A DNA stretch of 64,000 bases, from the NCBI RefSeq assembly GCF_000686945.1, contig NZ_JMME01000002.1, forward strand, positions 124,001 to 188,000, read 5' to 3'. Numbering within the stretch: the first letter of the stretch is position 1; each line of letters starts with the position of its first letter. The notes beneath the pieces were generated by a model. It was given only the letters and a program-made list of their open reading frames with translations, made no database searches and was not told the DNA's origin. Positions 8,125 to 20,844 of the stretch are shown piece after piece. The position numbers were made by a program, and so were the translations under genes. This DNA is from Selenomonas sp. AE3005. GTDB taxonomy: Bacteria; Bacillota; Negativicutes; Selenomonadales; Selenomonadaceae.

Positions 8125-9492
8125 ATGAGCAAAAAAGTTCCCGTCGAAAAAGGAAAAGCTTATGAAATCGTAATCAATACGCTGGGCACCAGCGGTGAAG
8201 GCGTAGGACGCTATGAAGAGTTTACGGTATTTGTGCCCTATGCCCTGCCGGGCGAAACGGTGGAAACCGTCATTGATGAAGTGAAAAAGACCTATGCCAA
8301 GGGGCATGTCAAAAAAATCATCAAGCAAAGTGCGGACAGAGTGGAGCCGGTTTGCGGCATTTATGATAAATGCGGCGGCTGTCAGTTGCAGCATTTAGAC
8401 TATATGGCGCAATTAAAAGCCAAGCGTCAGCAGGTTATCGACGCGGTGACGCGTATCGGCAAACAGCCGGACTTGTATGTTGAACCCACCATTGGCGCTG
8501 CTACGCCGTGGAATTATCGCAATAAAATGCAGTTTCCCATCGGTAGGGAAAAGGGCAAGACCATTATCGGCTGTTTTGCCCAGGGGAGTCATGCCATCAT
8601 TGACACCACTGACTGTCATATCCAAAAGGAAGGCAACAACGAAGTCGTCAACGCCGTACGGGAAATTGTCACCAAGCTGAATATTCCCGTCTATAACGAG
8701 GATAAACATACCGGCGTCCTGCGTCATGTGGTAGGGCGCGTGGGCAAGAATGGCGATATTATGGTTGTCATCGTTACCGCCACCAAGACCATGCCCAAGG
8801 AAAAGGAATTTGTCAAAATGCTGCGGAGCAAGCTGCCCAAGGTGGTCAGCGTTCACCAGAATATCCAGACCTATCACAACAACGTTATCATGGGGCGTGA
8901 TACCAAACTTCTCTGGGGACGGCCGACCATTCAGGACAGCATTGGCCGCCTGAATTTCCATATTTCCCCGCGTTCCTTCTTCCAGGTCAATACCAGTCAG
9001 GCAGAGGTTCTCTACAACAAAGCCCTGGAATATGCTAATCTGACCGGTCAGGAAACCGTTATTGACGCTTACTGCGGTACGGGGACAATCACCCTGTTCC
9101 TCGCGCAGAAAGCCCATAGCGTTATCGGCATAGAAATCGTTAAACCGGCTATTCTTGACGCGCAGAAAAACGCCCGCGATAACAATGTGCGCAATGCTGA
9201 GTTTATCGTAGGCGATGCTACCAAGGTTATGCCACGTCTCTATAAGCAGGGCGTCCGGGCGGATGTAGTAGTCGTAGACCCGCCGCGCGCCGGCTGTACG
9301 CCGACTGTCCTGGAAACCTTCGCCAGTATGCAGCCGGAACGCATTGTCTACGTATCCTGCAACCCCGCCAGCCTGGCCAGGGATATTGCTATTCTTGATG
9401 AATTAGGCTACAAAGCTGTAAAAGTACAGCCTGTTGATATGTTCCCGTGTACTTCGCACGTCGAGACGTGCGTCCTACTCGTTAGGGAGTAG
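8125..9492 (+). CDS. rlmD: 23S rRNA (uracil-C5)-methyltransferase RlmD/RumA-type
   Basis: A SAM-dependent enzyme methylating a uracil in 23S rRNA. The 455-residue frame has an N-terminal TRAM domain (GEGVGRYEEFTVFVPYALPGE). The iron-sulfur cysteines are in VCGIYDKCGGCQ near residues 76-86, with the SAM motif DAYCGTGTITLFLA. The catalytic pair is DPPRAGC and Cys412 in YVSCNPASLARD. The frame ends at TAG 9490-9492, just after the conserved HVET motif, which is a normal end for short members. The same reading frame continues after the TAG with a C-terminal extension domain (see next entry). The core enzyme is intact and should be active. Confidence 0.9.
   Translation: MSKKVPVEKGKAYEIVINTLGTSGEGVGRYEEFTVFVPYALPGETVETVIDEVKKTYAKGHVKKIIKQSADRVEPVCGIYDKCGGCQLQHLDYMAQLKAKRQQVIDAVTRIGKQPDLYVEPTIGAATPWNYRNKMQFPIGREKGKTIIGCFAQGSHAIIDTTDCHIQKEGNNEVVNAVREIVTKLNIPVYNEDKHTGVLRHVVGRVGKNGDIMVVIVTATKTMPKEKEFVKMLRSKLPKVVSVHQNIQTYHNNVIMGRDTKLLWGRPTIQDSIGRLNFHISPRSFFQVNTSQAEVLYNKALEYANLTGQETVIDAYCGTGTITLFLAQKAHSVIGIEIVKPAILDAQKNARDNNVRNAEFIVGDATKVMPRLYKQGVRADVVVVDPPRAGCTPTVLETFASMQPERIVYVSCNPASLARDIAILDELGYKAVKVQPVDMFPCTSHVETCVLLVRE
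9455..9472. repeat. palindrome at the 3' end of rlmD (possible integration site)
   Basis: CGCACGT (9455-9461) and ACGTGCG (9466-9472) form a perfect 7-bp inverted repeat around CGAG. It covers the codons for the conserved HVET segment. The 3' end of rumA/rlmD is a known integration hotspot for Firmicutes mobile elements, and the accessory island begins immediately downstream. That it is the crossover site here is inference. Confidence 0.35.
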
Positions 9493-9959: not shown

Positions 9960-10001
9960 GGGGGCTGGTTATATACCAAATAATCCCCAGAGGTGAGAGG
10001 A

Positions 10002-11132
10002 ATGGCTAAACAAATTCATATTCGATTAGAGGATTCTCTGTTTGAGGCTCTTTCTGAATATACAGATACATCAGGCCAGTCTGTTCAGGACGTTATTTCA
10101 AGTTCTATAATGCAGATGTTAAGTAATCAAATGCAGGCGGCGGAAAGCAAAGAGGCAAGGTTTACATTTATAGACTTATTTGCCGGAATCGGAGGAATGC
10201 GAATCGCATTTGAACGCCAAGGTGGCGACTGTGTTTATTCAAATGAATGGAATAAATACTGCCAACAGACATATTTTGCTAATTTTGGAGAGCAACCGGA
10301 CGGTGATATAACAAAAGTCGATGCGAGGATAATTCCAGATCACGATATTCTGGTAGCGGGATTTCCCTGTCAACCATTTAGTATAGCCGGTGTATCCAAG
10401 AAACAGAGTTTGGGGCGTGCAACAGGTTTTGAAGATAAAACACAAGGAACACTCTTTTTTGATGTATGCCGTATCATTAAGGCAAAACGGCCTAAGGCGT
10501 TTATGCTTGAAAATGTAAAGAACCTGAAAAGCCATGATAAAGGCAACACGTTCAAAGTCATAATGGAGTCTTTAGATGAACTTGATTATGAGGTTTTCCA
10601 TGCAATACTTGATGGTCAGAATTATGTGCCGCAGCATAGAGAAAGAATCCTGATAGTTGGCTTTGACCGGAAACGATATGGAAATGATTTTGATTTTAAG
10701 TTTGATATAACACCTGCAGAACCCAAACCATTGATGAAAGACATCCTTGAAGAAACACCTGACTCTAGATATACCCTCTCGGACAAGTTATGGATTTATC
10801 TTCAAAACTACGCTGAAAAACATAGAGCTGCTGGGAACGGATTTGGCTATGGTATAGCAGATCCAAATGGTATTGCCAGAACTTTAAGTGCAAGATACTA
10901 CAAGGATGGATCAGAAATTCTTATTGCACAGGAAGGTGGTAATCCCAGAAGATTGACTCCCAGAGAATGTGCAAGACTTCAGGGTTTTCCTGATAGTTTT
11001 AAAATTGTTGTATCCGATACCCAAGCATATAAACAATTTGGAAATTCGGTTGTAGTTCCTTTAATGACAGATGTTGCAGGTCTTATTGTTTCGAAACTCG
11101 ATGAAATGGATGGTGAAAGCTGTGAGTCTTGA
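10002..11132 (+). CDS. dcm: DNA (cytosine-5)-methyltransferase, Dcm/EcoRII type
   Basis: A 376-residue C5-cytosine methylase. Residues 1-45 (KQIHIRLEDSLFEALSEYTD...) look like a ribbon-helix-helix DNA-binding segment. Motif I is FIDLFAGIGG. Motif IV has catalytic Cys123 in GFPCQPFS. Motif VI is ENV at 170-172, motif VIII is QHRERILIVGF and motif X is QFGNSVVVPL. The target-recognition region between motifs VIII and IX and the partner genes suggest CCWGG specificity, as for Dcm/M.EcoRII; that is an inference. The ATG at 10002 follows GAGGTGAG. The 3' end overlaps the endonuclease gene by about 23 bases. Codon and base use are more AT-rich than in the core genes on either side. Confidence 0.93.
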   Translation: MAKQIHIRLEDSLFEALSEYTDTSGQSVQDVISSSIMQMLSNQMQAAESKEARFTFIDLFAGIGGMRIAFERQGGDCVYSNEWNKYCQQTYFANFGEQPDGDITKVDARIIPDHDILVAGFPCQPFSIAGVSKKQSLGRATGFEDKTQGTLFFDVCRIIKAKRPKAFMLENVKNLKSHDKGNTFKVIMESLDELDYEVFHAILDGQNYVPQHRERILIVGFDRKRYGNDFDFKFDITPAEPKPLMKDILEETPDSRYTLSDKLWIYLQNYAEKHRAAGNGFGYGIADPNGIARTLSARYYKDGSEILIAQEGGNPRRLTPRECARLQGFPDSFKIVVSDTQAYKQFGNSVVVPLMTDVAGLIVSKLDEMDGESCES

Positions 11133-12369
11133 AAGCGGATACTTGAAACAGTACTTTAAGGGTATTATTGCAAAAAAGCTGTCTGCTGTAGAAACCACAC
11201 CAAAAACCAGTAATCAACATGAATTCAATGCGGCATCAAAGATGAAGGAAATTTTTGGGCTTGACGATCGGAAATTCAAAGCGGATTTTCTTTATATCGA
11301 TGATGAGCAAAGCTTTGGTGCAAGTGATTTTTTGACATGGTACGATGCAAGAAGAAATCATCCTACGAGGACAGAGTACCGACTGTATTATCCTTCTACT
11401 ACAGTTTCTGAAGCAGCATCCGTTGGAGATTCGCTTTTTATATGTGTAAAGCAGGATGAAACAATTTTATGCATTATATCATGTAAAGATGCCACGATTA
11501 CGAGACAGTTATACTGGTTATTTGATATTGAATCGAATGATACTGGCAAATTTACTCAGAATGCGGATCTTCAGACAGACAGCGGACAGCTAGAATTTGT
11601 TGCTCGAACTATACTGACTCAGATTGGAATTGAATATATTGAACCCGACAACCAAGGGCTTCTCTCTCAGCTTCTTGAAAGGTTTGGAGGGACTTTTCCA
11701 AAGACCGAAGTATTTTCTAAGTATGCGCGGTCTCTTGTCTCAGATGTTGATCCAATAAGTGATCCGGATCGAACGCTGACTAAGTGGTTTGATATGGAAG
11801 AGAAACTGTTCTTCCTTTTAGAACAACATACCATTCGCGAAAGACTAAAGGAAGGATTTTATGATGGCGAGGATGTAGATGTTGATGGCTTTGTTAAATT
11901 CTCGCTATCAGTTCAAAATCGAAGAAAAAGCAGGGCCGGCCTTTCATTAGAAAATCATATCTGCGCATTGCTGGATGCAAATGGGATAGCATATTCACAC
12001 ACTCCAGTTACGGAGAACAGATCTAAGCCAGATTTCCTTTTCCCTGACATTGTGTGCTATCGAAATAATGAATTTCCTGCCAGCAGATTGATGATGCTTG
12101 GTGCCAAGAGTACTTGTAAGGATAGATGGCGGCAAGTTCTGGCCGAGGCAGACAGAATAGAAAAAAAGCATCTATTGACCCTTGAGGCGGCAATCAGTAC
12201 TTTTCAGACAGATGAGATGGCTGACAAAAAACTTCAACTGGTTATTCCGCAGTCAATTCATAAGACATATACAGAGAAGCAGCAGGCTTGGCTGTTTTCT
12301 GTTGAAGATTTCTTGCATGAAGTAAGATTGAACCAAAGGTTGACAGCCTATGCTTCCATGCTTAAATAG
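11110..12369 (+). CDS. EcoRII-like type IIE restriction endonuclease
   Basis: A restriction enzyme partner of the adjacent methylase. From the ATG at 11110 the product is 419 residues, close to EcoRII itself. The N-terminal half corresponds to the effector DNA-binding domain. The C-terminal half has the EcoRII catalytic core of PD-(D/E)XK type: RAGLSLENHICALLDANGI, KPDFLFPD and then MLGAKSTCKDRWRQVLAEA with the catalytic Lys. EcoRII enzymes cut CCWGG and need a second site as activator. The start is uncertain because the gene overlaps dcm and lacks a clear Shine-Dalgarno sequence; translation is probably coupled. Confidence 0.88.
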   Translation: MVKAVSLESGYLKQYFKGIIAKKLSAVETTPKTSNQHEFNAASKMKEIFGLDDRKFKADFLYIDDEQSFGASDFLTWYDARRNHPTRTEYRLYYPSTTVSEAASVGDSLFICVKQDETILCIISCKDATITRQLYWLFDIESNDTGKFTQNADLQTDSGQLEFVARTILTQIGIEYIEPDNQGLLSQLLERFGGTFPKTEVFSKYARSLVSDVDPISDPDRTLTKWFDMEEKLFFLLEQHTIRERLKEGFYDGEDVDVDGFVKFSLSVQNRRKSRAGLSLENHICALLDANGIAYSHTPVTENRSKPDFLFPDIVCYRNNEFPASRLMMLGAKSTCKDRWRQVLAEADRIEKKHLLTLEAAISTFQTDEMADKKLQLVIPQSIHKTYTEKQQAWLFSVEDFLHEVRLNQRLTAYASMLK

Positions 12370-12371
12370 TG

Positions 12372-12821
12372 ATGGATAAAATAAGCATTGCAGAGAGAAG
12401 CAAAAACATGTCGGCCATCAGAGGCCAAAATACCAAGCCTGAGCAGCTGATACGACAGTGGTTATTTGCGAAAGGATATCGATATAGGCTTCATGTGAAA
12501 TATATCCCTGGACACCCGGATTTATATCTAAGCAAATATAATACAGCTATTTTTGTGAATGGATGTTTCTGGCATCGTCATAATAACTGTAAATATGCTT
12601 ACACGCCCAAAAGCAATATAGAGTTCTGGCTCAAGAAGTTTGAAAGCAATATCAGACGTGACGATGAGGTGAAAAAGCTGCTTGAAGAGCAGGAAATAAA
12701 GCAGCTTATAATTTGGGAATGCACAATAAAGAAAATGTCAAAGAATGTTGACGACAGATGTGAAATGTTAAGCAAAATAGAGCTGTTTTTGTCGAACGAT
12801 GATCAACATCTCGAGATCTAA
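12372..12821 (+). CDS. vsr: very short patch repair endonuclease
   Basis: Vsr nicks 5' of the T in T:G mismatches that arise when 5-methylcytosine deaminates at Dcm sites. The 149-residue protein opens with RSKNMSAIRGQNTKPEQLIR. It has the catalytic GHPDLYLSKYNTAIFVNGCFWHRHNNC segment, with the Asp and His residues and the zinc-binding Cys/His set. It lies directly after the endonuclease stop, overlapping it if the GTG at 12369 is used. Linkage to a Dcm-type methylase is the normal arrangement. A perfect 16-bp terminator ends the operon. Confidence 0.95.
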   Translation: MDKISIAERSKNMSAIRGQNTKPEQLIRQWLFAKGYRYRLHVKYIPGHPDLYLSKYNTAIFVNGCFWHRHNNCKYAYTPKSNIEFWLKKFESNIRRDDEVKKLLEEQEIKQLIIWECTIKKMSKNVDDRCEMLSKIELFLSNDDQHLEI

Positions 12822-12844
12822 GCGAAAATAATATATCAATCATT

Positions 12845-12885
12845 ATTACAAAAGGACGTCTATAACAATGACGTCCTTTTGTAAT
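12845..12885 (+). terminator. terminator of the R-M operon
   Basis: ATTACAAAAGGACGTC (12845-12860) is perfectly complementary to GACGTCCTTTTGTAAT (12870-12885). It separates the R-M genes from the following ATPase operon. Confidence 0.85.
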
Positions 12886-12930
12886 ATACGAAGAATGTTT
12901 ATAATAATTTAAAAATATTATACACATATC

Positions 12931-12959
12931 TTGACGTAAACCGGATGCGGTGGTATAGT
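12931..12959 (+). promoter_or_regulatory. promoter of the GHKL-ATPase operon
   Basis: TTGACG (12931-12936), 17-base spacer, TATAGT (12954-12959), about 50 bases upstream of the first gene. It shows that the four following genes form their own transcription unit. Confidence 0.7.
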
Positions 12960-13009
12960 TATTAACAGGAAATCAAAATATAACGGACATATTCTGAAAG
13001 GAGCTCAAG

Positions 13010-13240
13010 ATGAGTGAGACGAAAAGAGAAAAATTTGTGAGATTGGCAGAAGGAAGAACTAATAAAATCATAGACACGCTGCAGCTTCTGGGCAATCTTT
13101 CCAATACGGGAGCTTATGAGTACTCTAAAAAAGATGTGGATCAAATGTTTAAGGCAATTGAAGAGGCTATGACAGATACCCGTAAAAAGTTTGATAAAAG
13201 TGAAATCAAAGAGAAGAGAAAGTTTTCCTTTAAGGATTAA
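13010..13240 (+). CDS. small helical protein, first gene of the ATPase operon
   Basis: A 76-residue, highly charged protein with a good AAAGGAG ribosome site. The pattern EKFVRLAEGRTNKIIDTLQLLGNLSN ... YEYSKKDVDQMFKAIEEAM predicts two or three helices. Similar small proteins with an RTNKIID..LLGN..N ... YEYS.ED core recur in accessory regions of Firmicutes, but I know of no function. It is ten bases upstream of the GHKL ATPase and probably co-regulated with it. It could be a regulator, adaptor or antitoxin-like control protein. No membrane segment or signal is seen. Confidence 0.75.
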   Translation: MSETKREKFVRLAEGRTNKIIDTLQLLGNLSNTGAYEYSKKDVDQMFKAIEEAMTDTRKKFDKSEIKEKRKFSFKD

Positions 13241-13250
13241 GGAGTAAAAA

Positions 13251-15167
13251 ATGTTTATATGGCAAGATAAGTATTATTGGGATTTCTCTGATGAAGGCCG
13301 TTCCGCACCAGATAAAGGGCCTGCCATTACTGGTACAAAGATGTTTCGTGGAGGCCACTTTAAAAATGTCATTCGAGAAACAACTCAAAATGGGCAAGAT
13401 CAAAAAAATCCAGAATTACCCACAGAAATACCAGTACGTATGACATTCGAGTATTTATTACTGGATCGTGAAGATATTCCAGGAGTGGATCGTCTTAGTT
13501 CTGTCATAGAAAAATGTTATTCATATATGAAGGGGAAACCCAAGGTTAAAATGGATGACATAGAGATACTTGAAAAAGCAAACCAAAAATATCTGAAGGC
13601 ATCAACAAAAGTACCTGTTTTGAAAATCAGTGATTATAAAACCAAGGGCCTTTCATCTATGAATTATGAATCTCTGATGAATAATGAAGGGATTACGTAT
13701 GATGGAAATGAGGATCGAGGAGGGTCTTTTGGCTTCGGAAAATTTGCCCCGTATTTATTATCACCAGTAAACACGGTTTTATACTCTTCGAAAACAAGCG
13801 ATGGTAAATATCTATTTCAAGGTAGAGCTTTGCTTTCAACATTTGAAGAAGACGGAGATCGTAAACAGGGAACCAGTCTTTTTGGATATGTTAGTGAAGA
13901 CGGGAGAAGAATTCTTCCTATAGATAATCCTCAGGATGTCCCAGCTGCATTTAGACGTGATGAACCGGGAACGGATTTATATATTTTAGGTTTTGATCGT
14001 TCAGATGATTGGAAAGATCAAGCTGTTTTTAGTGCCTTGGAAAACTTCTTCTATGCTATCTGGAAGGATAAGCTTGAAATCGTTATTAAGGAAGGCAACG
14101 AACAGATTGAAATAAATAGCGATACTTTGGACACCGTAATAACAGAATATGAGGAAAAGGCGAAAAGATACGAGGAATATAGATGCTTTGAATTTACTGC
14201 TCCGATTTTCTGGAGAGTTTTAAATGATCCAAGAACTGTTTTTGTCTCAGATCATGATTTCAGAAAAAAAGGAGAGGTTCTTCTTTATATTTTAATGGGT
14301 GAGGATGTTGAAGGCCGATTTGTATTACAGATGCGTAATTCTGGCATGAAGATACGAATTGTTGATAATTTTAAGCGACTACCTCCCTTCAATGGGGTTC
14401 TAATTGCGACTGGTGCGGGAAAAGAGACTGAAGACTACAAAAACAATATCAGCAAGTTTTTACGTGAAATGGAAAGCCCGGCCCATAATTCATGGGAGTT
14501 AGAAGACATTAAAAAGCCGGAGATAGTGGGCGAAGCGAAAAAGGTAATAGAGTCATTACACACTTGGATAAGAAGTACTGTAGTAGACCAAATGCCAAAA
14601 GATGATGGGACCCCTATAGACGCTTTTGGATTAAATAAAATACTTCCAGATGTTACAGGTTCCGGTGATAGCAAGATAGAGGAAGCTGCAGTGTTTAATT
14701 TTGTCCCGCTCCCGGTCGAGACTAAAGAAGGGTCTAAAGAACGTCCTGCTAGGGAGATTATAGTTAACGGCAGAGGAAAACCAGACCCGGACCCTGATCC
14801 CGATAGGAAGATTAAGCATCCTAACAATCATCGTAACAATCATCCAAAGGGAAAGGTGGTTGCGAAACAGATAAGGCTTCAGAAAGTTAGGACACCATAT
14901 CTGGATGAAAAAAAAGCGTATAAAGTATCGTTTATCTCTCCAACAGATGCGGATGATCTACTTCTTAAAATTAATGTTAGCGGAGATGATTCAACAACAT
15001 TTGAATCGAGTGCCACAAGTGCGTCTTCCAAGGGGAAAAGACTTCAAATCAAGGACGGGTTTATACATGTCCCGAATGTGAAAAGGAATGAAAAAACAGC
15101 CCTTGAGATAGTGATTGCTGAAAGCGAAGAATGTGCATTGGAGGTTAAAGCATATGTTAAGAGCTGA
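13251..15167 (+). CDS. GHKL-fold ATPase (HSP90/MutL/MORC-like), candidate defence protein
   Basis: A 638-residue protein. Bergerat ATP-site motifs are readable. The N box is ETTQNGQD, with Glu43, Asn47 and Asp50. KISDYKTKGL (Asp128) takes the DxGxG position. GGSFGFGK at 157-164 is the glycine lid, and GTDLYI at 240-245 has the motif-IV Thr. This places it in the GHKL superfamily, which includes MutL, MORC and HSP90 and dimerises on ATP. After the ATPase and transducer-like part comes a Pro/Asp/Lys-rich linker near residues 495-530. A beta-rich C-terminal domain of about 100 residues ends the protein. No nuclease motif is seen. MutL/MORC-like ATPases have been described beside restriction-modification genes. 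It is part of a four-gene operon. Confidence 0.8.
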   Translation: MFIWQDKYYWDFSDEGRSAPDKGPAITGTKMFRGGHFKNVIRETTQNGQDQKNPELPTEIPVRMTFEYLLLDREDIPGVDRLSSVIEKCYSYMKGKPKVKMDDIEILEKANQKYLKASTKVPVLKISDYKTKGLSSMNYESLMNNEGITYDGNEDRGGSFGFGKFAPYLLSPVNTVLYSSKTSDGKYLFQGRALLSTFEEDGDRKQGTSLFGYVSEDGRRILPIDNPQDVPAAFRRDEPGTDLYILGFDRSDDWKDQAVFSALENFFYAIWKDKLEIVIKEGNEQIEINSDTLDTVITEYEEKAKRYEEYRCFEFTAPIFWRVLNDPRTVFVSDHDFRKKGEVLLYILMGEDVEGRFVLQMRNSGMKIRIVDNFKRLPPFNGVLIATGAGKETEDYKNNISKFLREMESPAHNSWELEDIKKPEIVGEAKKVIESLHTWIRSTVVDQMPKDDGTPIDAFGLNKILPDVTGSGDSKIEEAAVFNFVPLPVETKEGSKERPAREIIVNGRGKPDPDPDPDRKIKHPNNHRNNHPKGKVVAKQIRLQKVRTPYLDEKKAYKVSFISPTDADDLLLKINVSGDDSTTFESSATSASSKGKRLQIKDGFIHVPNVKRNEKTALEIVIAESEECALEVKAYVKS

Positions 15168-16002
15168 TGTAAGCTATCCCTATCCAGTATTGAGGCCAAT
15201 GGCTGTTGATTTTGCAAATACAGTGTTTTCAGATCAGATTCATGTGGAAAACACAGCTACAGGGTATAAGCTTATAACGAATTTTTCTGTAAATAATGAG
15301 AATATTGCTCAAATGATTGAGGGAGGAATTCTTTCATACGCAGTGTTTGTCACCTGCCGTTCTACCTTGCTCAGAAAAATGTTTTATATTGATAATGATA
15401 ATCCGATTATTAATATAGCGGCGAAAGATGTTCATTATCAAGTAAACTATACAGCTTTTATGGTTGTGCTGCAGGATATAGATTCATACTGGAATGAGGA
15501 TTTTGAGGAAGACTACAAGGAAAATCATTACAGATTAGGTCGCGGATCCATCTTTGCAATTGGATCTGAAAGACAGTTTCGTGCATTGTATGACAAAGAT
15601 ATTATTCATGATGCTGCTTCTATAGTAAGTATTTCTGGCAGTGATGAAGAAAAGTATATGAGAATAATTTTGGACAGCCCGCAAATAAAGGTTGTCCTCC
15701 CCACAGAGCAGGTAACAAAGTATAAGGGCTTTAAAAATGAAAAATCAAAGTATCCTTTACTTCATTCTATTTTTGTTGTTCCTGCTTTGGTTGAGGCTAT
15801 TAGTACAATGCAAACAACTGAACCAGAAGGCGATATGGCGCATCGCCCTTGGTTTATTACGCTCGAACAGGAACTAAACAAGCTTTCTCAGAAACTTAAT
15901 GAGCCTCTGGATAATCTTTATGATTATCCAACAAGGACGGCGCATATTCTTTTAGAAAATAATTCTGGGATTGCATTAAAAGCCTTGGAAACACTGGCAT
16001 AA
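15154..16002 (+). CDS. unrecognised protein of the GHKL-ATPase operon
   Basis: A 282-residue protein that I do not recognise. The ATG at 15154 overlaps the ATPase stop by 14 bases, so coupled translation and stoichiometric production are likely. The N-terminal 150 residues alternate short hydrophobic strands (GYKLITNFSV, LSYAVFVTCRSTLLRKMFYID, YTAFMVVLQDID), suggesting a beta-rich domain. The last 80 residues are helical (ALVEAISTM, FITLEQELNKLSQKLNEPL). There is no signal peptide, membrane span or obvious nuclease triad. Its conserved position between the ATPase and the DUF6339-like protein implies it works with them. Confidence 0.7.
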   Translation: MLRADVSYPYPVLRPMAVDFANTVFSDQIHVENTATGYKLITNFSVNNENIAQMIEGGILSYAVFVTCRSTLLRKMFYIDNDNPIINIAAKDVHYQVNYTAFMVVLQDIDSYWNEDFEEDYKENHYRLGRGSIFAIGSERQFRALYDKDIIHDAASIVSISGSDEEKYMRIILDSPQIKVVLPTEQVTKYKGFKNEKSKYPLLHSIFVVPALVEAISTMQTTEPEGDMAHRPWFITLEQELNKLSQKLNEPLDNLYDYPTRTAHILLENNSGIALKALETLA

Positions 16003-16014
16003 AGGAGGATAAGA

Positions 16015-16938
16015 ATGAATTTGCAATTTTTACGGCAAGAAGCACTCGATGTCTTATCCCGAAGTATTCCGGAAAATATTGAACTGTATGCGGATCAGGA
16101 ATCCCCTTGGATAAACGACTTTTTCGTCAAGCATGAGATAAAGGTTCCTAGTTTTATGTCCGAAATTGACATACCAGACATAGAACTGATATATGGAGCT
16201 GATTCCAAAAATGATGCTGAAAATGCCGTTCGGTTATATGAGGCTTTCAAAAACCGCATTTATCCTGTCCAGGCAATGGATCGCAGGCTATGGGTTCAGT
16301 TAACACATAATGAATTCTATGGGTACATGCGAAGCAGGTGGAATGTTGAAAATACCTTAAATGACAGAGGAACGAATGGAACTGTTACAGACAGATATTT
16401 TGTAAGCCGCGGGTTGTTTAGAAACGGCATATCTCGGTTATATTGGATTGCGGAATCGACTTATGACGAATCACTGGAAGATCCGTATGAGTACACTCGG
16501 TTTTTGATTGGATATCAAGATCTAATTAATCAGGTTGACGGCAGATCTTTATGTAGAAATAAAAACATCTTACACTCATGTCTTAAAACACTAAAAAATG
16601 CAGGAGATCTCACTGAACGTCAAAAAAGACTATTTTTCGAGGGCATATGCAAACGAGGCGGAGTAAAAGTACTTGATGCTTTGCCGATGGATGTACTTGA
16701 TGATTTGTGCAAGAGTACCTTGGAACGAGTCCTAGAAATTAAGCAGATAAAGAATGGAAGTAAAGTATATCTACAGGCGGTAGATTCTGACATCAGTCTG
16801 GTCATTATTGTTCGAAATGGGAAAGCATATAGGGGTAAATCATTATTTAAAACCAAGCCAGATAACCTCTATAGACTGACTGTGGGAAACGAAATGGAAT
16901 TGGGAAAGAAAAAATACAGGATTACTGATATTAAGTAA
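16015..16938 (+). CDS. DUF6339-like protein, last gene of the ATPase operon
   Basis: A 307-residue protein with a strong AAGGAGG ribosome site 12 bases after the previous stop. The central block WVQLTHNEFYGYMRSRW, then RYFVSRGLFRNGISRLYWIAESTYD and DPYEYTRFLIGYQDL, agrees with what I remember of the DUF6339 family, whose function is unknown. I cannot confirm the family without a profile search. The C-terminal 60 residues (DISLVIIVRNGKAYRGKSLF ... MELGKKKYRITDI) look like a small separate beta domain. It is likely a partner of the GHKL ATPase. A strong terminator follows. Confidence 0.65.
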   Translation: MNLQFLRQEALDVLSRSIPENIELYADQESPWINDFFVKHEIKVPSFMSEIDIPDIELIYGADSKNDAENAVRLYEAFKNRIYPVQAMDRRLWVQLTHNEFYGYMRSRWNVENTLNDRGTNGTVTDRYFVSRGLFRNGISRLYWIAESTYDESLEDPYEYTRFLIGYQDLINQVDGRSLCRNKNILHSCLKTLKNAGDLTERQKRLFFEGICKRGGVKVLDALPMDVLDDLCKSTLERVLEIKQIKNGSKVYLQAVDSDISLVIIVRNGKAYRGKSLFKTKPDNLYRLTVGNEMELGKKKYRITDIK

Positions 16939-16974
16939 CCAGATAATGCAACTGATAGAATCATAAATACCTAT

Positions 16975-17021
16975 AATAACAAAGCCCTAATCGGAAGCGG
17001 TTAAGGGCTTTGTTATTTTGT
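16975..17021 (+). terminator. terminator of the GHKL-ATPase operon
   Basis: AATAACAAAGCCCT (16975-16988) pairs perfectly with AGGGCTTTGTTATT (17004-17017), followed by T-rich sequence. Confidence 0.88.
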
Positions 17022-17739: not shown

Positions 17740-20097
17740 ATGTATGAGAGATTACCGCAGGAACTGAAGGCCCATGCCGGTTTCTGCGGATGGAAGTATG
17801 AACAGCGTGACGGCAGGAAGACCAAGGTACCGAAGACCGTCACTGGAAGGAATGCCGATATCAGTAACCCTTCCGACTTCTGCGGGTTTGAAGAGATCCT
17901 GAAGAAGGCCGGTAACTACGATGGTATAGGCATCGCTGTCAGGGATGACCTTGCAGCCATAGACATCGACCACAGCATCGTGGATGGAAGCCTCACGGAT
18001 CTGGCAGCGGGGATCGTGGAGAAGGTGCGGAGTTATATGGAGATAAGCCCTTCCGGCGAAGGCATCCGCATCATAGGGAAGGTAAGCGGCTTCACCTATG
18101 ACAGGGAGCGGTATTACATCAACAACCGGAAGCTGGGGCTTGAGGTATATGCACCTGGCGGGAAAAGCCGTTTCGTCACGGTGACCGGCAATGCAGTCAG
18201 GGATTATCCCATGCGGGATATAACGGACGTTCTGCCGGAAATCCTTGAGGCTTATATGCGGAGGCCGGAACCGCAGCAGACAGAGGGCCGCGCAGATGCT
18301 CCCGGAAGCTTCCTGACGGATGAGGAAGTGACGGAGAAGGCGGCAGCGGCTGTGAACGGTAAAAAGTTCGCTGACCTCTATAACGGGGATATCAGCGGCT
18401 ACCCATCACAGAGCGAGGCGGAACTTGCTTTCATGACGATGCTGGCATTCTGGTGCGGCGGGGACGCGGATCAGATGGACAGGATCTACCGCGGCAGCGG
18501 CCTGTACCGGGCGAAATGGGAACGGGCCGATTACCGGGAGCATACACTCAGCAAGGCCGTGAACGGGACAGCAGATTTCTATATGCCGCCGGAAACCTCG
18601 TCAGCGGATGAGGATTTTGAAGCCCTGAACGATGCCCAGAAGGCCTGTGAAGAGCCGATACCGCTTGAGGAGATGACTGTACCGTCTTTCCCGGTCGATG
18701 CACTGCCGGAGGATATCAGGGACTATGTCCTTGCTGTCGCGGAAAGCACCCAGACGCCTGTGGATGTGGCTGCATGCGCTGCCCTGTCTGTCATCTCCAT
18801 CGGGATGCAGGGGAAATATGTGGTCAGGCCGAAGCCAGACTGGACGGACCCGGTGAATACCTTCATCGCTGTGTTCATGCCCCCTTCTGAGCGTAAGTCG
18901 GCTGTCTGCTCCGCAATGGGGAAGCCGATGAACGAGTATGAGAAGGAATGGAACAGGGAGCATGCGGCGGAGATCGATTTCAGCAAGTCGCAGAAGAGCA
19001 TCCTGGAAAGGAGGCTGAAGGCGCTGGAAGATCAGGCTGCGAAGGGCAAGGCGGAAATGGAGGATGTCCGAAGGGCGTCAGAGGAACTGTCAGCTTTCCG
19101 GGAGCGGAAGCCCCTTCGCTATTACGGGGACGATGTGACCACGGAGAAGCTCGTCAGCATGATCTCCGAGAACGGCGGCAGGGCAGCCATCTTCTCCCCG
19201 GAGGGCGGCATCTTCGACCTTCTGAAGGGGATGTACACAAGGTATGTGAATATCGATGTCTTCCTTAAAGGGTACTCCGGGTACCCGATCCGTGTGGACA
19301 GGATAGGCCGGGAGAGCGAGGTCATCTATACCCCCGTGCTTACCGTCATGCTGATGGCACAGCCCAGCGTCCTTGCCGGGGTAATGGAGAATGGGAATTT
19401 CAGAGGCAGAGGGTTGACCGCAGGGTTCCTTTACTGCATCCCGGAGTCATATGTCGGAAAGAGGAAATACCGCTCTGAGCCGATACCGGAGGAAACGTAC
19501 CGTAAGTATGAGCGCTACATCAGGAATATCCATGCAGATTAGCCGGATATGCAGCCGGAAGCCATCACGCTGTCACCGGAAGCGGACAAAATGCTTGAAG
19601 CCTTTTCGGAGGAACTGGAGCCGAAGCTGAAGGCTGAGTATGCCGATATAGGCCACTGGGCCGGGAAAATAGTGGGAAACACTGCTCGGATCGCAGCACT
19701 CCTGTGCAGGGCTGGAACGCCTGTTACCCGTGACTTCCTTGATGTCAGCGAACCGCTCATCATAAGCGGCACGGTTATGGCTGATGCCATCCGCATCGGA
19801 AGGTATTTCATCGAACATGCGAAAGCGGCATTTTCACTCCTGGGGGCGGATGAAAGGATACAGAACTGCAAATATGTCCTGTCTGCAATCCAGAGGGCAG
19901 GGCTTACGGAAGTCAGCCGGAGGGACATTATGCGGCTGTGCAGGACGTTCAAGACAGCGGAAGAAGTGCAGCCTGTGATAGACCAGCTTGCCGATTATGG
20001 GTACCTGGCTGAGAAGAAACCGGAACGGCAGACGGGCAGCGGAAGGAATCCATTGCCTGTCTATCTGGTGAACACAGGTGCCTTGGACAGAAAATGA
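17740..20097 (+). pseudogene. primase / DUF3987 helicase-like protein, interrupted by an in-frame amber codon
   Basis: A plasmid/phage-type replication protein. The frame opens at the ATG 17740 after AAGGAGG and runs 600 codons to TAG at 19540-19542. It then continues in the same frame for 182 further codons to 20097, giving a 785-codon gene when the TAG is read through. The N-terminal part (FCGWKYEQRDGRKTKVPKT ... GIGIAVRDDLAAIDIDH ... SPSGEGIRI) resembles the primase-polymerase domain of such proteins. The middle (FPVDALPEDIRDYVLAVAES, MPPSERKS) matches DUF3987. The TAG falls within the conserved RNI.A..P..I.LS junction, so the tail is cut off. It is probably inactive or makes a shortened protein. 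Confidence 0.75.
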
Positions 20098-20277: not shown

Positions 20278-20844
20278 ATGAACTGTCCGGAAATGCCTGC
20301 ATTGATGTTTTCAGCTACAGATGCTGTTTCACGCAGTAAGGCAGTATCTTATGGGCGAAAGATGATGCGCCGTTTGGCAGCTTATTTCAAGCGGAATATT
20401 CCCGGCTTTTAAAAAGCCTATATCAGCCGCGAAGCCAGCATGGTAGGCGTGCGCGAGTCTTGGCGGATTCGTGGGAAGTACTACCTGGAAGCTGATGATT
20501 ATTTGAAGGCACGTCATTTTCCCGATGCCGTCTGTCGAACGGCATATCCCATAGATATTCATGATGTGAAGCTGGATGTATTTAAGAAGCTGAAAAAGGG
20601 ACAGTATTACGAAATCCCCTATCGTGCCCTGGTGACCAATGAGATGTCCAACCTGCTGGTGGCAGGACGCTGCGCCAGCGGCAGTTTTACTGCCCAGGCC
20701 TCCTTCCGTATACAGCCCACCTGCATGAGCATGGGAGAGGCAGCCGGCATTGCGGCAGCTTGGGGGCTTTCCCGCAACATTCCCGTAAATGAAATTAAAT
20801 GGGAAGATATACCTGCTGAAAAACGCAGTTATGTAAGCAAATAA
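20278..20844 (+). pseudogene. remnant of an FAD-dependent oxidoreductase (C-terminal part)
   Basis: From about 20278 the frame reads a decayed C-terminal region of the FAD-dependent oxidoreductase family: ATDAVSRSKAVSYGRKMMRRLAAYF, an in-frame TAA at 20410-20412, then AYISREASMVGVRESWRIRG. The final block ALVTNEMSNLLVAGRCASGS ... QPTCMSMGEAAGIAAAW is well preserved. The N-terminal FAD-binding half is missing. An ATG at 20440 exists but has no proper ribosome site. It lies at the right side of the accessory island, and insertion or deletion there probably destroyed the gene. Confidence 0.75.

What the first reader, a model, noticed from the sequence alone, without database searches (positions are those of the whole stretch)
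12931..17021. Self-contained four-gene operon built around a GHKL ATPase beside an EcoRII-type R-M unit: candidate undescribed defence system
Directly visible: a near-consensus promoter (12931-12959), four tightly spaced or overlapping genes, and a perfect 14-bp terminator (16975-17021). Gene 2 has all four Bergerat ATP-site motifs (ETTQNGQD, ISDYKTKG, GGSFGFGK, GTDLYI). Gene 1 is a small helical protein, gene 3 is not recognisable, and gene 4 looks DUF6339-like. Known: MutL/MORC-type GHKL ATPases occur in prokaryotic R-M-linked operons, and the mza system pairs a MutL-like ATPase with Z1, DUF and AIPR genes. Here the Z1 helicase and AIPR partners are absent, so the gene set differs. Inference: ATP-driven dimer clamp with two partner proteins acting against phage or plasmid DNA.
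Basis: partly seen in the sequence, partly recalled or inferred. Interest (0 to 1): 0.82.

Follow-up and report, generated by a model that had tools for sequence, protein, structure and literature searches.

The report
Catalogued candidate phage-defence operon (PDC-M33)
The four genes form a real, mobile operon built around an ATPase of a DNA-clamp type; three of them match a candidate anti-phage system that is already catalogued but apparently untested, and the small fourth gene and a transcription-factor-like tail suggest new ways to test how it works.

Summary
Genes at 13010-16938 sit behind an extended -10 promoter-like site and end in a perfect 14-bp terminator stem, on low-GC DNA (38%; left flank 51%) beside a genuine EcoRII/Dcm/Vsr unit. 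The operon is not undescribed: genes 2, 3 and 4 match PADLOC's candidate system PDC-M33 (A, B, C; E 1.6e-104, 1.9e-54, 2.3e-52), and the ATPase carries the ExxxH mark of the published paraMORC2 family, invariant in 70 of 70 aligned sequences. A-B-C is one unit in 85 of 89 loci with enough flank. It is enriched beside C5-methyltransferases but also travels alone (queA-tgt slot, 11 loci of one genus).

Added here: (1) gene 1 is a recurrent fourth member (adjacent in 47 of 121 loci) and, outside M33, precedes unrelated GHKL-like ATPases in 5 of 10 further loci; (2) gene 3 is modelled as a fibronectin-III-like sandwich plus helices; (3) gene 4's tail looks like a GreA/Gfh1 C-domain (low confidence), and 18 related loci carry a protein with sigma-4 or RNA-polymerase alpha-CTD domains. 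Best reading: a mobile anti-invader ATPase clamp with modular, sometimes RNA-polymerase-directed accessories. Defence activity is untested.

The parts
12931..12959 (+). promoter-like TTGACG-17-TATAGT with extended -10 TG
   Evidence: lies directly upstream of gene 1; pattern frequency in the region is not above chance
13010..13240 (+). gene 1 (sm), 76-aa small protein, recurrent partner of GHKL-type ATPases
   Evidence: phrog_7012 E 8e-4; NF033604 E 0.0046, below cut-off
13251..15167 (+). gene 2 = PDC-M33A, 638 aa, GHKL-motif ATPase with ExxxH (E408, H412)
   Evidence: (E 1.6e-104)
15154..16002 (+). gene 3 = PDC-M33B, 282 aa; FN3-like beta-sandwich (about 24-147) plus helical C-terminal part
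   Evidence: E 1.9e-54; mean pLDDT 91.2
16015..16938 (+). gene 4 = PDC-M33C, 307 aa, DUF6339 (residues 66-233) plus C-terminal tail
   Evidence: E 4.8e-42; E 2.3e-52
16744..16935 (+). GreA/GreB C-domain-like tail of gene 4 (residues about 244-307)
   Evidence: pLDDT 50-71 here; 2pn0 Z 5.7; 2f23 Z 5.4, 28% id
16975..17017 (+). terminator, perfect 14-bp stem
9993..11132 (+). neighbouring Dcm-type C5 cytosine methyltransferase (separate unit)
11071..12369 (+). neighbouring EcoRII-type endonuclease (separate unit)
   Evidence: EcoRII-C E 5.5e-68
12369..12821 (+). neighbouring Vsr endonuclease (separate unit)
12844..12886 (.). perfect 17-bp stem after the R-M unit

Best explanation
The operon is a horizontally acquired, divergent member of PADLOC's candidate defence system PDC-M33, in its four-gene form (sm-A-B-C). 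Most likely it acts against invading DNA. The paraMORC2-type GHKL ATPase (A) closes as an ATP-dependent dimer on DNA. The FN3-like protein B and the DUF6339 protein C are obligate partners that recruit the clamp or carry out the effect. The small protein sm binds or stabilises the ATPase. In this locus a GreA/Gfh1-like tail on C may tether the complex to RNA polymerase. The adjacent EcoRII R-M unit is a frequent but dispensable companion. Shown: gene order, family matches, co-occurrence, invariant ATP-site residues, signs of mobility. Modelled: the folds of B and of C with its tail. Inferred: clamp action, DNA target, role of sm, RNA-polymerase tether, defence function.
For: PADLOC matches in order. 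DUF6339. Invariant Bergerat-type and ExxxH residues, 70 of 70. B and C follow A in 85 of 89 loci with enough flank, 80 of 84 clusters at 90% identity and 38 of 41 at 50%. sm directly upstream in 47 of 121 loci. Mobility: plasmids of three phyla, 7 viral contigs, GC 38% against 51% in the left flank, and DNA similarity stopping at 9464-9470 in 20 of 20 same-genus genomes with a match. C5-MTase density 0.105-0.117 per kb next to A-B-C against 0.010 per kb at 5-10 kb upstream. Neighbours include R-M units of several types, Shedu, AbiG, AIPR and Z1 genes.
Against: No experiment on PDC-M33 was found: 0 papers for 'PDC-M33', 0 for 'DUF6339'. The fold of A was not modelled, and Pfam and profile comparisons did not confirm GHKL. 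No nuclease or toxin domain was recognised in A, B or C, so the effector is unknown. The tail of C has pLDDT 50-71, its Foldseek TM-scores are low (0.15-0.17 of the query), and unrelated DM10-type rows score as well as GreA. In 39 of 73 loci with 5 kb on both sides no C5-MTase was found within 6.5 kb.
Confidence: 0.55

Rival explanations
1. M33 is an accessory of R-M systems: the clamp senses methylation state or controls or assists the linked methyltransferase and endonuclease.
For: C5-MTase density is about tenfold higher beside A-B-C than 5-10 kb upstream. sm-bearing loci have a C5-MTase more often (19 of 28 against 15 of 45, Fisher p 0.007; p 0.002 by clusters at 90% and at 50%). Iyer et al. 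place paraMORC families in R-M operons (PMC2292703).
Against: A-B-C lies between queA and tgt in 11 loci of genus g272 with no PF00145, PF02384 or PF01555 hit within 10 kb on those contigs (some contigs are short). With any of my methyltransferase models the sm association is weaker (19 of 28 against 20 of 45, p 0.059). R-M partners are of several unrelated types. In the window the two units have separate promoter-like sites and terminator stems.
Confidence: 0.22
2. M33 is an abortive-infection or toxin-antitoxin-like system in which B or C is a toxic effector held in check by the ATPase.
For: Compact fixed operon, some abortive-infection neighbours (AbiG in L058, AIPR in L065), no recognised nuclease in A.
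Against: No toxin-like match among the fold-search rows seen for B or C; parts of both models were barely tested, so this is weak.
Confidence: 0.15
3. A is a MutL-like mediator for Vsr repair of T:G mismatches at 5-methylcytosine, so the operon is a repair partner of the Dcm-Vsr unit.
For: Vsr and Dcm are adjacent in the window; Vsr-type genes occur in 14 loci of the survey, window included.
Against: Those 14 are of 121 loci, many M33 loci have no C5-MTase, and B and C have no known place in that repair.
Confidence: 0.05

Closest known systems
PADLOC candidate system PDC-M33 (PADLOC-DB 2.0.0)
   Same: A, B and C present in order, matched over most of their length.
   Different: The window's A is divergent (22-30% identity to the 69 other rows of A7); a small gene that matches no PADLOC model precedes it; C has an extra Gre-like tail. 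PADLOC's own gene-set rule was not seen.
paraMORC2 family of GHKL ATPases (Iyer, Abhiman and Aravind 2008, PMC2292703)
   Same: N-terminal GHKL motifs, a conserved ExxxH motif farther on, R-M neighbourhoods, Gram-positive bias.
   Different: Their sequences were not compared here; B and DUF6339 are not described in the parts of the paper read (parts 1 and 2 of 4, and passages).
mza (MutL, Z1, DUF, AIPR) system
   Same: ATPase of MutL-like kind in a multigene defence operon; two loci with a Z1-type gene (L055, L056; mza-like is my label) are weak relatives of M33A (L056 E 7.7e-10), and six M33 loci have a Z1-cluster gene within 10 kb, two of them (L027, L088) about 2 kb upstream.
   Different: No Z1 or AIPR among the window genes scanned. 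B and C matched no mza model.
VcSduA, Shedu with a GHKL N-terminal domain (PMC12137116)
   Same: GHKL ATPase in tested phage defence; the ATP-site variant loses activity (passages).
   Different: VcSduA carries a fused nuclease (DUF4263); no nuclease domain was recognised in M33A.

Membership tests
PDC-M33 | PDC-M33A protein | tested here: met
   E 1.6e-104, residues 10-636 on 5-625 of 627
PDC-M33 | PDC-M33B protein | tested here: met
   E 1.9e-54
PDC-M33 | PDC-M33C protein | tested here: met
   E 2.3e-52; DUF6339 E 4.8e-42
PDC-M33 | anti-phage activity | not testable with these tools
   one paper calls PDC systems unpublished candidates (PMC11811056, passages); no test found
paraMORC2 | GHKL N-box, G1, G2 and motif IV residues | tested here: met
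   invariant or nearly so in 70 sequences
paraMORC2 | strongly conserved ExxxH in the C-terminal part of the S5 domain | tested here: met
   E408-x3-H412, 70 of 70; that this region is an S5 fold was not shown
paraMORC2 | grouping with the published paraMORC2 sequences | not tested
   those sequences were not at hand
GHKL ATPase superfamily | profile similarity to known GHKL ATPases | tested here: inconclusive
   no HATPase family among the 25 of 47 Pfam families shown for 70 members; one member (L073) HATPase_c_3 E 0.13; hhalign against 12 MutL: probability 1.3, E 0.039, N-boxes aligned, three controls lower; against 30 GHKL proteins score 28.2 but out of register; the shuffle control there is flawed
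mza system | Z1 helicase and AIPR in the operon | tested here: not met
   no Z1 or AIPR hit among the ten window proteins scanned
GreA/GreB C-terminal domain (tail of gene 4) | domain fold | tested here: inconclusive
   top 9 Foldseek rows are GreA/Gfh1, E 0.015-0.30, none <= 0.001; VIA Z 4.3-5.7 with unrelated rows interleaved; Pfam GreA_GreB in 2 of 9 tails, best E 0.037, the window's own tail not among them

The most novel reading that the evidence does not exclude
Two linked ideas. First, the small protein sm is a general plug-in partner for GHKL-type ATPases of mobile elements: it directly precedes M33A and three further GHKL-like ATPase groups that BLAST cannot align with each other. Second, M33 is a transcription-coupled clamp, tethered to RNA polymerase by a GreA-like tail of C in some lineages and by a separate sigma-4/alpha-CTD protein in others, so that it is loaded on actively transcribed invader DNA.
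Probability: 0.2. Interest if true: 0.78.

Novelty: new member of a known kind. Interest (0 to 1): 0.5.

Why it matters
PDC-M33 is widespread (413 relatives by tblastn from two patterns in the 84,980-species contig collection), yet my searches found no paper that names it. The comparative data give handles for tests: an invariant ATP site and ExxxH motif, two near-constant partners with confident models over much of their length, a small fourth gene shared with other GHKL-like ATPases, and transcription-linked accessory domains. If RNA polymerase is involved, this would be a new way for a GHKL clamp to find foreign DNA.

Tried and rejected
Housekeeping reading of the ATPase: the PADLOC family search rang in 0 of 14 control genomes, and the genome's own MutL is another gene elsewhere.

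Strict R-M dependence: rejected because A-B-C also occurs with no methyltransferase hit within 10 kb and beside genes that I recognised by eye as housekeeping (sequences printed; the labels are recalled, not from a search).

Sequence searches of solved structures: A1 gave one row (E 0.23), A2 one row (E 0.58), A3 45 rows, nearly all ferritins at E 0.011 or worse, read as chance. The tail alignment A8 gave 10 rows, GreA at E 0.8 among unrelated ones.

Profile-profile test of GHKL membership: inconclusive. One search used 12 of 13 MutL loci (one gave no sequence). In one search the program printed an alignment-format error, and repeated scores among the 40 shuffles suggest that some runs re-read an older result, so that control should not be relied on.

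The helical part of gene 3 and the first 160 residues of gene 4 were barely tested by the VIA tables. VIA Z under 8 for gene 3 may mean only a common arrangement.

My home-made HMMs for adenine methyltransferases (seeded from L058, L060, L029) find few members, so counts of 'no methyltransferase' are upper bounds. Fisher tests are not corrected for relatedness beyond clustering; the sigma/alpha-CTD association with sm is uncorrected. Seven duplicate contigs (L074, L083, L110, L130, L137, L149, L153) were dropped before the counts, leaving 121 of 128 loci with A; the set itself is the best-scoring part of a larger family (80 of 413 kept).

Papers: PMC2292703, parts 1 and 2 of 4 plus passages; PMC12137116, PMC11811056 and PMC9252829, passages (the last holds no 'PDC'); PMC8011034, outline and abstract; the rest, search listings only. 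Absence from print rests directly, and on the listings.
Full report
WHAT IS THERE. Four ORFs on the + strand (13010-13240, 13251-15167, 15154-16002, 16015-16938) are closely spaced or overlapping. An extended -10 promoter-like site lies at 12931-12959 and a perfect 14-bp stem at 16975-17017 closes the unit. Promoter-like patterns are no more frequent here than in shuffled sequence (22 against 21.8), so only position speaks for this one. To the left is an EcoRII-type unit: C5-methyltransferase, EcoRII-C endonuclease and Vsr, followed by a 17-bp perfect stem. Both units have low GC (39.6% and 38.0%; left flank 51.3%).

THE ISLAND LOOKS MOBILE. Of 22 same-genus genomes searched (own included), 20 others match the gene left of the island, and in 20 of 20 the similarity stops at 9464-9470, near the 3' end of an RNA uracil-5-methyltransferase gene; six of them were fetched and show the same. 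In G536 other DNA fills the space between this gene and the epimerase gene that follows the island. M33A was found in 8 of 398 genomes drawn from the phylum (own included; G142 is a weak, mza-like hit) and in 25 of 189 genomes of the family (own included; G570 weak and mza-like, some others fragmentary), in 23 records of the plasmid collection (one of 2.6 Mb), 1 record of the phage collection and 7 viral contigs.

IT IS ALREADY CATALOGUED. PADLOC-DB 2.0.0 matches gene 2 to PDC-M33A (E 1.6e-104), gene 3 to PDC-M33B (1.9e-54) and gene 4 to PDC-M33C (2.3e-52); gene 1 matches nothing there. Pfam sees DUF6339 in gene 4 (4.8e-42). A paper on the Bacillus cereus group calls PDC systems unpublished candidates (PMC11811056, passages). 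Full-text searches gave 0 papers for DUF6339 and 0 for PDC-M33.

THE ATPASE. In a 70-sequence alignment the residues of the four GHKL motifs are invariant or nearly so, and so are R362, M366, E408 and H412. E408-x3-H412 fits the ExxxH motif that Iyer et al. (PMC2292703) give as the mark of their paraMORC2 family, described with R-M operons and as common in cyanobacteria and Gram-positives. Motif evidence is strong; profile evidence is weak. No HATPase family is among the 25 of 47 Pfam families shown for 70 members. Profile comparison with MutL aligned the N-boxes but with probability 1.3, and a wider comparison was out of register with a flawed control.

CO-OCCURRENCE. After dropping 7 duplicate contigs, 121 loci had A. 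Of 89 with enough flank, B followed in 88, C in 85, both in 85. The four exceptions are a broken A (L054), an mza-like locus (L056) and two with divergent C proteins (L064, L065; DUF6339 E 0.017 and 0.0095). By clusters: 80 of 84 at 90% identity, 38 of 41 at 50%. Gene 1 lies directly upstream in 47 of 121 loci and within 4.5 kb in 52.

R-M LINKAGE. C5-methyltransferase hits by distance: 0.9-2.5 kb upstream 18 of 107 loci (0.105 per kb); 2.5-5 kb upstream 6 of 93 (0.026); 5-7.5 kb upstream 2 of 82 (0.010); 7.5-10 kb upstream 1 of 42 (0.010); 3-5 kb downstream 22 of 94 (0.117); 5-7.5 kb downstream 9 of 83 (0.043); 7.5-10 kb downstream 4 of 46 (0.035). Of 73 loci with 5 kb on both sides, 34 have one within 6.5 kb. 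sm-bearing loci have one more often (19 of 28 against 15 of 45, p 0.007; clusters at 50%: 13 of 17 against 4 of 19, p 0.002), but with any of my methyltransferase models the difference is 19 of 28 against 20 of 45, p 0.059. Partners are diverse: Sau3AI/MutH-type, AlwI, EcoRII and type I R-M units. Yet A-B-C (or its remains) lies between queA and tgt in 11 loci of genus g272 (the labels come from one representative each), with no PF00145, PF02384 or PF01555 hit within 10 kb on those contigs (some contigs are short). R-M is a companion, not a component.

GENE 1 HAS A LIFE OF ITS OWN. A profile of gene 1 hits 4 of 398 phylum genomes, two of them with M33. In the plasmid collection gene 1 hits 16 records, 6 of them M33 loci; I read 8 of the other 10. 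With L206 and the phage-collection record L217, which is nearly the same element as L215, that makes the 10 non-M33 loci; L207 (contig edge) and the phage locus L214 are extra. In 5 of these 10 (L206, L208-L211) the next gene starts within about a dozen nucleotides and encodes a large protein with GHKL-like motifs. These fall into three groups with no BLAST similarity to each other at E 1e-3 and no match to the M33A profile at E 10. In the other five (L212, L213, L215, L216, L217) I saw no such gene. The GHKL label of these proteins is from motifs read by eye; Pfam found no family in the one that I scanned (L206). It is a lead. A Synechococcus phage carries the gene with only small genes annotated beside it.

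GENES 3 AND 4. Gene 3 models with mean pLDDT 91.2 and pTM 0.68. Residues 24-147 resemble fibronectin-III-type beta-sandwiches (VIA Z up to 7.8, rmsd 3.2-3.4 over 96-97 residues; best Foldseek E 2e-3), a common fold that names no function. Gene 4 models with mean pLDDT 86.6 and pTM 0.82: a helical core plus a tail. The tail resembles GreA/GreB/Gfh1 C-domains: 2pn0 Z 5.7, rmsd 2.1, 55 residues; 2f23 Z 5.4, rmsd 2.7, 61 residues, 28% identity. The top nine Foldseek rows are all GreA/Gfh1, E 0.015-0.30, with low TM-scores. Against it: the tail's pLDDT is 50-71, unrelated rows score alike, and Pfam sees GreA_GreB in 2 of 9 tails at best E 0.037, not in the window's own. C tails vary across loci: HTH-like in L089 and L090 (E 9.7e-5 and 4.6e-4, below cut-off), a long extension in L086 and L094. 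Tails of 55 residues or more past the core were picked up by a rough motif rule in 21 of 116 proteins, a few of them false.

A TRANSCRIPTION THEME. In 18 loci a protein, 800-1190 residues in 16 of them and shorter in two, stands beside A-B-C on the same strand, 16 downstream of A and 2 upstream. Of 8 scanned, 5 have RNA polymerase alpha-CTD domains (E 1.1e-37 to 3.6e-6); of 7 scanned at a lax threshold, 7 have Sigma70_r4 at E 4.1e-7 to 0.017, 5 of them over Pfam's cut-off. 17 of the 18 loci have sm, against 35 of 103 others (p 1.2e-6, uncorrected). With the Gre-like tail this suggests contact with RNA polymerase. The alternative is that alpha-CTD and HhH modules simply bind DNA.

VERDICT. A sound observation and a sensible guess, but the core is a catalogued candidate system with an ATPase that fits a published family. 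What is added is the small gene as a shared partner, the predicted folds, and the transcription-linked accessories. Function remains inference until tested.

Noticed in passing
L095, L096, L111, L112, L114, L117, L119, L123, L125, L135, L143 and others (18 loci): Large protein with RNA polymerase alpha-CTD and/or sigma-70 region 4 domains (8 scanned) encoded next to A-B-C on the same strand.
   Followed up: partly
L206:459-2984; L208:5224-7089; L209:5235-7100; L210:5238-7640; L211:5233-7080: GHKL-like proteins (by motif) unrelated to M33A directly follow a gene-1 homologue.
   Followed up: partly
L214:3980-4258 (Synechococcus phage S-CRES1 gp47): Phage-borne gene-1 homologue with only small genes annotated beside it; could be a decoy or anti-defence protein.
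   Followed up: no
window 9464-9470: Similarity stops here, near the 3' end of an RNA uracil-5-methyltransferase gene, in 20 of 20 same-genus genomes with a match: a variable insertion slot.
   Followed up: partly
window 17740-20097: Primase-helicase-like gene (DUF3987) split into two adjacent ORFs, with a sigma-like gene before it.
   Followed up: no
window 20440-20844: C-terminal fragment of an FAD-dependent oxidoreductase; similar DNA occurs elsewhere in the same genome.
   Followed up: no
L027, L088 (about 2 kb upstream of A); L109, L133, L138, L142 (7-9 kb downstream): Genes of a Z1-domain cluster near M33 loci, a possible link to mza; Z1 was confirmed by Pfam in L027 and L056 only.
   Followed up: partly
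L065:6638-7879: AIPR-family gene directly before a divergent M33 in an Enterococcus faecalis plasmid.
   Followed up: no
L086:3694-5223, L094:12805-14349: DUF6339 proteins of about 510 aa with a long C-terminal extension not matched by Pfam.
   Followed up: no
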